Shown here one piece after another: positions 21,601-58,916 of a DNA stretch of 64,000 nucleotides. Each line of letters begins with the position of its first letter. Within the stretch, counting starts at the first letter, position 1. Source of the DNA: Natronoglomus mannanivorans. Lineage in GTDB: Archaea; Halobacteriota; Halobacteria; Halobacteriales; Natrialbaceae. The notes beneath the pieces were generated by a model, which saw only the letters and a list, made by a program, of their open reading frames with translations, made no database searches and was not told the origin of the DNA. The position numbers and the translations under genes are program-made. The stretch is from NCBI GenBank assembly GCA_025517485.1, contig JAOPKB010000010.1:62001-126000 (forward strand), read 5' to 3'.

Positions 21601-21608
21601 ATAACAAA
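21601..21608 (+). promoter_or_regulatory. ATAACAAA box
   Basis: It starts exactly 34 bases before the ATG at 21635, in the TATA position of a leaderless gene. Confidence 0.5.
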
Positions 21609-21634
21609 CACTGAGGAGCGGGCACAGTGGAATC

Positions 21635-21991
21635 ATGGTCGTTAACAGCATCGTCGTTTTCGTCGCGAGCCTGTTGATTGGTGCGCTTGGAATCTACATC
21701 GGTGCGAGCGTCATCGTCGATTCCGACGATTACACCTACGCGATCGTCACCGCGTTGATCGGGGCGATCGTCTGGGCGATCGTCGGCTTTTTCTTCGGTT
21801 GGATCCCCCTCCTCGGCCCGATACTGGTGTTCATCGCGTATCTGACGGTGATCAACTGGCGATATCCCGGTGGGTGGGTCGAGGCGATCGGTATCACGCT
21901 CGTCGCGTGGCTGTCGGTCCTGATCGTCCTCTACATCCTCGCGTTCCTCGGGATCACCGGCTTCGAGGCCGCTGGCGTCCCAGGAACGTAA
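21635..21991 (+). CDS. small integral membrane protein of unknown function
   Basis: 118 residues, nearly all hydrophobic, with about four helices separated by short polar turns (DSDDYTY; NWRYPGGWVE). No motif suggests a reaction, and I do not recognise a named family. It stands alone on the plus strand behind an ATAACAAA box at the leaderless position, which ties its expression pattern to other genes in this window rather than to a pathway. Confidence 0.7.
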   Translation: MVVNSIVVFVASLLIGALGIYIGASVIVDSDDYTYAIVTALIGAIVWAIVGFFFGWIPLLGPILVFIAYLTVINWRYPGGWVEAIGITLVAWLSVLIVLYILAFLGITGFEAAGVPGT

Positions 21992-22234
21992 TCGACGTGG
22001 CTGTCGACGGCTCGTCAACGAAGACGAGTCGCTATCGAATGGGATGGTAAAACATATCATAGACGGCCGAAGAGCCGATTTTCGCCACTCGCGCCGTCGG
22101 AGTCGATTCACTCGAGACGGACAGTTTTCGAAGTAGATACTTAACGGCTAGAATCCAGCGGGAATCCCGGATAACCGTTCCAAACGTCCGAGAGCGTTTA
22201 TCAGATGGCCCGACCAGCCATTGGGTGGAGTACA

Positions 22235-22477
22235 ATGAAACGTACAATCATCGTTCTTGGCGTCGCACTCATGCTCGTACTGGCTGGGTGTGGCGGCCCA
22301 GGTGATGCACCGGAAGACAACGGCGAAGACCCGGCTGGTGAAGATCCGATGGAAGAAGACGGAGTTGAAGAGGACGGAGTCGAAGAAGATGGGGCCGAAG
22401 AAGATGGAGCCGCTGAAGACGATGCCGAAGGTGCGCTGATCGGTGGCCTCGCAGTGTCGGCGGCCGTGTTTGGGTAA
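22235..22477 (+). CDS. small acidic lipoprotein
   Basis: 80 residues from the ATG at 22235 (MKRTIIVLG). A hydrophobic signal ends in the lipobox LAGC, so lipid attachment on Cys and extracellular anchoring are expected. The mature part is a repeat of Glu/Asp-Gly (EEDGVEEDGVEEDGAEEDG), then a short hydrophobic tail. Such low-complexity acidic lipoproteins are frequent in haloarchaea and have no assigned function. An in-frame ATG at 22205 would add ten residues before the signal and is less likely. Confidence 0.65.
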   Translation: MKRTIIVLGVALMLVLAGCGGPGDAPEDNGEDPAGEDPMEEDGVEEDGVEEDGAEEDGAAEDDAEGALIGGLAVSAAVFG

Positions 22478-56600: not shown

Positions 56601-56834
56601 CTCGAGTTCGTCCCAGTCGCTCGCGTCGAACGAAGGCGATTCGAACCCGTCCGGTGCGTGGTCCGGATCGGGTGCGAGGTCGAACTCCCACTGTCCGTTC
56701 AGCAGTCGAAACCACGGCGAGTCCTCGCGAGAACCCGCAAACGCCGAGTCGAGATCGGAAAACGAGAGTCGGTAGGCGTGTCCGGGGACCCGGTTTCGAC
56801 CGGAGACCTCGGGATCGGTCCAGTCCTCGTGCAT
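53625..56834 (-). CDS. lacZ: GH2 beta-galactosidase (LacZ type)
   Basis: 1069 residues from the only suitable ATG (56834, MHEDWTDPE). Domains in order: jelly-roll sugar-binding ([32 protein letters not shown]), immunoglobulin-like, TIM barrel and a large C-terminal small-chain domain. Barrel motifs [48 protein letters not shown] (acid/base Glu) and [16 protein letters not shown] (nucleophile Glu) are intact. No signal peptide, so intracellular hydrolysis of beta-galactosides is expected. It follows the PP-loop gene by 89 bases on the same strand. Confidence 0.95.
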
Positions 56835-56923
56835 GTATCGTGCTATCGTGGATGGAGGACGCCAATCAGGGTTCCGATCCCGGTGATTCGGGCCCCAAAA
56901 CCGAACGAGGGCACGACAGTTCC

Positions 56924-58267
56924 TTACAGACCCAGTCGACGGGACGCGTTCTTCGCCGCGTTCCAGGCCGGATACAGCGTCGTGTAGACGCCGTGAGGTG
57001 TGTTTCGCGCACCCGCACGAAGCGCGCGGTGGGAGAGCGGTGGCTCCGACTCGTCGACGAGTTCCCCGAGATCGGCGGTCTCGAGCCACGAGAAGAACTC
57101 GCGTTCGGCGGCCGACTCGGGTTCGGTCTCGCGGACGCGGTTCCGGATGTCCTCCCACATGTAGCGTTCGTCCTCGCCGAGGATCCACTCGCCGTTCTCG
57201 AGGGACCGGCGGAGGTCGTGATAGTTCGTCTCCGAGAACGGGTAGCCGTGGTCGGTCGGCTCGAGTCCGGAGAGTCTGAGTCCGACGGCGGTCCGGTAAC
57301 ACTTCTCGCAGTGTCCGCAGTTGCCGTCCATTCGATCGTTACACGTCTGGAGTTGGAGCTCGGGGGAGTGCTCGCGGACGTAATCGGCGATTACGTCCAG
57401 TCGTTCCTGACGGGTGAGATCGTAGGCGTCGTGGTGACACTGCGTGCCCGCCCAGCGGACGTGGTCGTCGATATCGGGACGAGAGCCCCACTCGAGGTCG
57501 ATCCCATCCCAGTGGGTCGCCGCGACGTAGAGGTTCTCCATGCCGCGGGCGTGGGCCATCGGTGCACAGAGGCCGAGCAGCCCGACGCCGTGGCCGACAG
57601 AACTGTACCAGCCCCCGTCGACGAACCGTTTGAAGTGTGCCAGCAACATGGGATGGTCGAGAAACGAGAGCATGTTCGACTCGACGAACTGGCTCTCGAG
57701 GTCACGCTCGTCGGCGAAGTTCTGGACCCGAGACTGGAGGTCGTCCCACCGGTCGTCGTGGGCGGCCGACGGCGAGATCGTCCAGCCGCGGATGCTGATC
57801 AGTGTCGGCTCTTCCTCTCGATGCCGGATGTACGAGCACGTGGAGTCGACGCCCCCGGTGAACAGGAGACCGCTGTCGCTCGGTGTCTCGCCGTCTCCGC
57901 TCTCGAGGTCCGGTTCGACGTCGATCGTCTCCCCCGCGTAGAGGGTCCCGCCCTCCATGAACTCGGGGTACAGCGAGAGCAGGGTCTCCTCGACGTCGCC
58001 GAGAGCGTGGGCGAACGTCTCGTCGACTTCGGGGACGTAGACGTCGGCACCGGTCGCCCAGGCGACGGGACAGACCTGCGAGAGGACCGGGATCGCGAGG
58101 ACTCCCTCGGGGACGTCCTCGATCGAGACGTCGTAGCTGACGCGGAACGGCTCGCCGCCGAAGAACCGACGGAGATCGTCCGTACAGGTGATCGTACACT
58201 CGAGGTCCGTCCCGTCGGTGTCGATGCGATCGATGCGAATTGCCGATGACGAAGGTGTCGATGACAT
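56924..58267 (-). CDS. PP-loop ATPase of QueC/ExsB-like type
   Basis: 447 residues from the ATG at 58267 ([12 protein letters not shown]). The central part has the PP-loop [17 protein letters not shown] for ATP pyrophosphate, and further on a four-Cys zinc cluster, [20 protein letters not shown], as in the 7-cyano-7-deazaguanine synthase family. The N-terminal 150 residues form an extra beta domain not found in QueC. It likely activates a carboxylate or amide with ATP, perhaps to modify a sugar, but no substrate is evident. It is upstream of the beta-galactosidase on the same strand. Confidence 0.75.
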
Positions 58268-58916
58268 TGGATGGGTAATCGGAGGTAGTGTCGAAAGCGT
58301 GAGCCGAGCCACGGACGGACACGAGCGTCTACGACCGTACACGTGAACGTACGCGTGGGTTCGGTCGCGATCGGCGTCCGAGCGCTCGGTGTTCGCTGTT
58401 CCACTAGCGATGACCATCACGAACTCCTACAAAAAGAACGGGAATCGTTGAACGATCGTGGTCGACGGTAGTGAGTGCCAATACCGGCGGGAAACGATGA
58501 CAGGGACTGGCTACCGGGCCGAGAGCGGGAATAGACGAGCGGAGTGAAGAACAGGGACAGGGGAAGAATGGAGGTGAATACAGCCCAAAGCGCGACTCGA
58601 GGGGCGAAATCGACGTCGGGAACTCTCAGCTGGAGTCGTCTCGACGCTGGCTCCCGTCTCGAGGGTCCGAGCGTGAGAACCGAGACGAAAACGACGAACG
58701 CGAGACGAACGCCGTCGAAGGCGGATGTACGCACGCGTGTGAAAAAGACAGTCCCGACGGGAGCGCGACAATTATCAACGGGTAGGAGACGTATAACAAA
58801 CCACCACGTTCACGAGTGTATCGACAGTCTATGTGTGTCGACCAGCAATCGAATCCGGACTCAGTGCCGGATTCGGCGTTAGACCAAAATGACCGTTCAG
58901 CGGTCGGAGGAGCTGC
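58268..58916. other. divergent intergenic region
   Basis: No normal gene supported. The right part contains ATAACAAA (58793) and a 29-codon ORF that overlaps the next start. Confidence 0.45.
58793..58800 (+). promoter_or_regulatory. ATAACAAA box
   Basis: 38 bases before the ATG of the leader ORF at 58831. Confidence 0.45.

What the first reader, a model, noticed from the sequence alone, without database searches (positions are those of the whole stretch)
21601..58800. Recurrent ATAACAAA box upstream of glycan and regulatory genes, often exactly 34 bases before the first ATG
ATAACAAA (or TTAACAAA) occurs on the coding strand upstream of genes at 21635, 29049, 29660, 32782, 37381, 41950, 47689, 48780, 49028 and 58917, with variants ATAGCAAA before 8945 and ATAACTAA before 10329. 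The distance to the first ATG is exactly 34 at 21601, 37222, 47723 and 48843, and 31-43 in most others. Ordinary TATA boxes in this window (61690, 63922, 18609, 7433) sit at about the same offset, so the box seems to replace TATA in leaderless promoters. Given the base composition, an AT-rich 8-mer should be rare. Seen: motif, strand and spacing. Inferred: a shared, non-canonical promoter, perhaps read by a particular TBP/TFB pair or a regulator.
Basis: partly seen in the sequence, partly recalled or inferred. Interest (0 to 1): 0.8.

Follow-up and report, generated by a model that had tools for sequence, protein, structure and literature searches.

The report
Conserved non-TATA promoter of haloarchaeal surface-glycan genes
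A short DNA word, ATAACAAA, sits where the usual TATA box should be in front of many cell-surface sugar genes of salt-loving archaea, always pointing towards the gene, and it is kept in the same place across several families; it looks like the shared switch of an undescribed gene network.

Summary
The window holds 10 ATAACAAA plus one TTAACAAA against 0.2 expected, all in noncoding DNA. In 500 kb of glycan loci from seven Natrialbaceae genomes the 8-mer occurs 69 times: 67 noncoding and pointing at a gene start, 2 coding, none noncoding in another orientation. It lies at about -34 to -27 and replaces the local BRE-TATA (CGgAAngTTTAT). It is conserved in orthologous promoters across five haloarchaeal families. 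Targets are envelope-glycan genes and regulators.

"Exactly 34" holds for two real gene starts (21635, 47689); two others are out-of-frame ATGs. A dedicated TFB was tested and not supported; TBP was not tested. The reader protein is unknown. My best candidate is the DUF7344 winged-helix family, predicted membrane-anchored, linked to the loci and more numerous in box-rich genomes; that link is correlative. I found no description of the element in the open literature searched.

The parts
21601..21608 (+). ATAACAAA box, 34 nt before ATG 21635 (118-aa membrane protein)
   Evidence: TA at -10/-9
29006..29013 (+). ATAACAAA box, 43 nt before PadR-family gene 29049
   Evidence: exact box at 43 nt in 60 of 80 related PadR loci, at another spacing in 11 more
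29049..29324 (+). PadR-family regulator (91 aa); target of the box, not its universal reader
29550..29557 (+). ATAACAAA box, 110 nt before DUF1616 protein gene 29660
31788..32321 (-). DUF7344 winged-helix protein with two predicted long hydrophobic helices, divergent from the box-driven acyltransferase operon; candidate reader
   Evidence: divergent pair also in family f7
32614..32621 (+). ATAACAAA box of hexapeptide acyltransferase / aminotransferase / Gfo-Idh / UDP-sugar dehydrogenase operon (32782-36960)
   Evidence: TA(-20/-19), A(-9) and box conserved to family f7
37222..37229 (+). ATAACAAA box, 159 nt before phosphodiesterase-family gene 37381
41908..41915 (+). TTAACAAA box, 42 nt before glycosyltransferase gene 41950
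   Evidence: orthologues in G008 and G009 have ATAACAAA at 40
47716..47723 (-). ATAACAAA box, 34 nt before ATG 47689 (Gfo/Idh oxidoreductase)
48836..48843 (-). ATAACAAA box of polysaccharide deacetylase gene (start about 48789-48780)
48967..48974 (+). ATAACAAA box, 61 nt before phosphodiesterase-family gene 49028
58793..58800 (+). ATAACAAA box, 124 nt before membrane protein 58917 (DUF6541)
8973..8980 (-). Variant box ATAGCAAA, 35 nt before 8945, with TA at -10/-9
22603..22610 (+). ATAACAAA in AT-rich DNA without A(-9); probably not a member
26665..27168 (-). Second DUF7344 protein of the island

Best explanation
The box is the core of a dedicated promoter element, TA-N8-[T/A/C]A-N8-ATAACAAA-R/G, that drives a conserved haloarchaeal cell-surface glycan regulon. 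Shown by sequence: the element, its orientation, its place at about -34 to -27 from an inferred start, the absence of BRE/TATA, and its conservation between families. Inferred: a sequence-specific protein reads it across about three helical turns and brings TBP/TFB and polymerase to promoters that cannot recruit them alone. Most likely reader, unproven: a DUF7344 winged-helix protein, some copies predicted to be membrane-anchored, which could couple envelope state to glycan synthesis. My confidence by part: regulon about 0.9, replacement of BRE/TATA about 0.8, activator rather than core-factor reading about 0.6, DUF7344 as reader about 0.3.
For: 67 of 69 boxes are noncoding and point at a start, 0 noncoding ones point elsewhere; permuted motifs average 1.8. 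A(-9) in 49 of 54 non-redundant promoters and 88% in another family. Canonical BRE-TATA score in box promoters no better than shuffled (13.5% vs 12.4% above threshold). 71 of 80 PadR loci carry the exact box; TA(-10/-9) and the box invariant over 42 de-duplicated promoters. Phosphodiesterase orthologues carry it at 33-37 nt in f3, f4 and f7, as in f1 and f6. Targets in f6 are scattered over the genome yet include many envelope/glycan genes and DUF7344 genes. DUF7344: beside the phosphodiesterase and acyltransferase boxes in f7 and divergent from the acyltransferase operon in f1; own box in f6; 11.5 vs 4.8 copies in box-rich vs box-poor genomes; winged-helix model followed by two long helices.
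Against: No transcription start or binding data. DUF7344 linkage is correlative: genomes are related, the family occurs in nearly all genomes, and three box-rich genomes have only 3 copies (G157, G169, G212). The fold search gave no match below E 0.001. DUF7344 proteins could be targets rather than readers. An activator lying on -34 to -27 would compete with TBP unless the box is itself read by the basal machinery.
Confidence: 0.6

Rival explanations
1. The box is a true alternative core promoter (BRE/TATA substitute) read by a TBP/TFB pair, like an alternative sigma-factor promoter; the upstream A/TA steps are extra contacts.
For: It sits exactly where BRE-TATA sits in neighbouring promoters, is strand-specific, and haloarchaea carry many TFB paralogues. 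A TFB gene lies inside the Natrialbaceae island.
Against: The island TFB is confined to most Natrialbaceae and absent from box-bearing G004 and from f6 and f7; in G003 the best match is only 66% identical. No TFB clade tracks the box; the best candidate clade is in 15/31 box-rich and 15/31 box-poor genomes. Strict 8-mer plus A at about -43 exceeds the usual TBP/TFB contact zone (established knowledge). An ancient TFB shared by all genomes, or a TBP paralogue, is not excluded.
Confidence: 0.22
2. PadR-family regulators bind the box; the PadR gene at 29049 is the autoregulated master regulator.
For: Box before PadR genes in five own-genome paralogues and in 71 of 80 related loci; the gene lies inside the island.
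Against: The close PadR orthologue is missing from G003, G004 and f6, which keep the boxes; best matches there are 72-74% identical, like ordinary paralogues. A palindrome is not visible in the element. PadR genes with their own box look like targets.
Confidence: 0.1
3. The box is an operator for a repressor that overlaps weak promoters, rather than an activating promoter element.
For: It overlaps the TATA position, as repressor sites often do.
Against: No canonical BRE/TATA remains for a repressor to cover; orientation is 67:0 and many sites keep a fixed distance to the start, which an operator does not need.
Confidence: 0.07
4. Chance or composition artefact of AT-rich intergenic DNA.
For: Genome-wide, the bare 8-mer is not more frequent than its reversed control.
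Against: Orientation, position and upstream-A conservation, permutation control and cross-family conservation.
Confidence: 0.01

Closest known systems
Canonical haloarchaeal BRE-TATA promoter
   Same: Same distance to the start; leaderless or short-leader transcripts; W near -11 and purine start
   Different: Sequence is ATAACAAA instead of CGgAAngTTTAT; strict 8-mer with added A at about -43 and TA at about -53/-54
bop / gas-vesicle type promoters with an upstream activating sequence (recalled, not tested here)
   Same: Activator site in fixed phase just upstream of the basal element
   Different: Those keep a TATA-like element beside a separate activator site; here the conserved word is in the TATA position itself
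CsmR motif of Haloferax volcanii, TATCA(N4)TGATA (PMC13286277)
   Same: Promoter-proximal regulator site next to the core promoter, shared by a regulon of cell-surface functions
   Different: Semi-palindromic and adjacent to a normal TATA box; this box is non-palindromic and replaces it
PadR/RosR regulators of haloarchaea
   Same: PadR-family genes belong to the regulon
   Different: The close PadR orthologue does not track the box

Membership tests
Canonical archaeal BRE-TATA promoter | Position about -36 to -25 upstream of the start | tested here: met
   Box starts 32-37 nt before ATG in leaderless members; purine at +33/34, W at +22; start sites inferred, not mapped
Canonical archaeal BRE-TATA promoter | BRE (CGAAA-like) plus T/A-rich TATA hexamer | tested here: not met
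   PWM from 239 neighbouring promoters scores box promoters like shuffled DNA
TFB-specific alternative promoter | A TFB clade present where the box is and absent where it is not | tested here: not met
   TBP paralogues not tested
PadR operator | PadR orthologue co-occurs with the sites | tested here: not met
PadR operator | Palindromic dimer site | tested here: not met
   No dyad visible in the base counts of 54 non-redundant sites
Regulon operated by a DUF7344 winged-helix protein | Regulator gene linked to targets and co-varying with site number | tested here: inconclusive
   Linked and correlated, but related genomes and exceptions
Regulon operated by a DUF7344 winged-helix protein | DNA-binding fold | tested here: inconclusive
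   Predicted winged helix, mean pLDDT 90 or more for residues 11-90; no PDB match below E 0.001
Regulon operated by a DUF7344 winged-helix protein | Physical binding to the box | not testable with these tools
   needs EMSA or ChIP-seq

The most novel reading that the evidence does not exclude
Haloarchaea have a second, class-wide core-promoter type (TA-N8-YA-N8-ATAACAAA) that works without BRE/TATA and is read by a membrane-anchored winged-helix family (DUF7344), so that envelope state switches surface-glycan synthesis directly at the basal promoter.
Probability: 0.22. Interest if true: 0.88.

Novelty: new variant of a known kind. Interest (0 to 1): 0.72.

Why it matters
Archaeal promoters are taught as BRE plus TATA, varied mainly by TFB/TBP paralogues. 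A strict, oriented word that stands in for them across several haloarchaeal families would be a promoter class of its own, defined by one functional regulon: the cell-surface sugar coat. It gives a list of co-regulated genes of unknown function and a testable candidate reader family with no publication in the library searched.

Tried and rejected
Island TFB as reader: restricted to part of Natrialbaceae. A TFB clade that at first held all six box-rich genomes and one of five box-poor ones: no association in 62 genomes. A first TFB tree probably had 12 rows translated from the wrong strand and is superseded. PadR as universal reader. Chance. Literature searches for the word and for haloarchaeal promoter variants found no match. 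PDB searches with DUF7344 gave nothing significant.

Full report
Observation. The window contains 11 WTAACAAA on the strands stated (0.2 expected, none of 100 shuffles reaches 11). All lie between genes. ATAACAAA is the most over-represented 8-mer of the noncoding DNA. In the whole genome the bare word is not more common than its reversed control (64 vs 76), probably because AT-rich contigs add background. Outside the island the convincing copies lie in front of PadR paralogues.

Conservation in the family. The pattern ATAACAAAN{18,36}ATG is found in all 125 genomes of the family, often in one cluster per genome. The family is Natrialbaceae: named records of related loci are Natrinema, Natrialba, Haloterrigena, Halopiger and others. 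I read glycan loci of six relatives (G003, G008, G009, G010, G011, G014) and the extended own island. In these 500 kb the word occurs 69 times: 67 noncoding and oriented to a downstream start, 2 in coding DNA, none noncoding in any other orientation. The 55 permutations of its letters average 1.8, and the commonest of these overlap the word itself. The relatives' loci were picked because they hold boxes, so the count itself is biased; the orientation and position are not.

Anatomy. Aligning 74 promoters on the box shows A at -9 (93%), non-G at -10, W at -20/-19, R or G then C after the box, W at +22 and purines at +33/34. After removal of similar promoters, A(-9) stands in 49 of 54. The steps at -20, -10 and +1 are 10-11 bp apart, one helical turn. 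If +33/34 is the start, the box covers -34 to -27 and W(+22) is about the -11 position. Neighbouring promoters without a box yield CGgAAngTTTAT at the same place; box promoters score for that motif like shuffled DNA. One-mismatch variants are few. ATAACAAT (7 of 7 with A at -9) and ATAACTAA (3 of 5) seem tolerated.

Spacing. Leaderless members have the box 32-37 nt before ATG. PadR genes mostly have 43, and about half the targets have the box 50-170 nt before the start. For 37222 and 48843 it refers to out-of-frame ATGs.

Other families. Across 244 genomes of the class, box plus ATG exceeds its control in several families (f6 genomes 11-20 vs 1-4; f7 g42 7-12 vs 0-1; parts of f2, f3, f4) and not in f4 g33, g60, g67 or f8 g49. 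In f6 the boxes are scattered over the genome, yet many targets are still sulfatase/phosphodiesterase-like enzymes, DUF1616-like proteins, glycosyltransferases and DUF7344 regulators (families judged from sequence, not all scanned), with A(-9) in 88%. Phosphodiesterase orthologues carry the box at 33-37 nt in f3, f4 and f7 and at 57 nt in another f4 genome; the two f2 genomes have ATAACAAT about 54 nt upstream. They lack it in the box-poor f8 genomes, in the same-genus genome G007 and in one f4 copy each of G141 and G202. The acyltransferase promoter keeps TAC(-20 to -18), A(-9) and the box between f1 and f7. Of 80 related PadR loci 71 have the exact box; over 42 de-duplicated promoters the box and TA(-10/-9) are invariant.

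Who reads it. A TFB gene lies in the island 11.7 kb right of the window, but it exists only in most Natrialbaceae and is missing from genomes that keep the boxes. In a tree of 92 TFB rows no clade separates box-rich from box-poor genomes; the most suggestive clade is equally frequent in both (15/31 each). The close PadR orthologue does not follow the box either. DUF7344 proteins are regulators found at or near the loci in each family examined. One is divergent from the acyltransferase operon in f1 (window 31788-32321), one lies between the acyltransferase and phosphodiesterase boxes in f7, and one has its own box in the f6 genomes. Box-rich genomes carry more of them (11.5 vs 4.8, Mann-Whitney p = 2.6e-6, not corrected for relatedness). 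The model is a winged helix followed by two long helices that look like membrane spans.

Limits. Gene starts come from a simple codon-usage caller of my own. Box-rich and box-poor genomes were chosen from the same search and are related to each other. TBP paralogues were not examined. No expression data were available. The literature search covers open-licence papers only. Families other than Natrialbaceae are known to me only by handle (f2 to f10, same order).

Noticed in passing
window 32614-32782; L077, L078, L084, L085: The leader of the acyltransferase operon is strongly conserved in Natrialbaceae (ACCTCGTTACC.G.TGTATCAG.ACGATTCCC), which may be an RNA or regulatory element.
   Followed up: partly
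window 48809 and 37256: Out-of-frame ATGs at +34 of the box open short frames (13 and 41 codons) ahead of the deacetylase and phosphodiesterase genes; relatives of the deacetylase gene also show an out-of-frame ATG at about +33 to +35.
   Followed up: partly
G000 whole genome: The genome holds 22 matches to one 91-aa PadR protein, about 20 of them with open frames; only five carry the box, others have different upstream sequence.
   Followed up: partly
L039:11704-12666 (G000:C2:137704-138666): A family-specific TFB paralogue (85-93% identical within most Natrialbaceae) lies inside the glycan island, next to a conserved 58-aa gene.
   Followed up: yes
window noncoding DNA: Other over-represented words: CTCGAG (98 vs 19 expected) and CTCAGGAA/CAGGAAAA (7 and 6 vs 0.4 and 0.3).
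   Followed up: no
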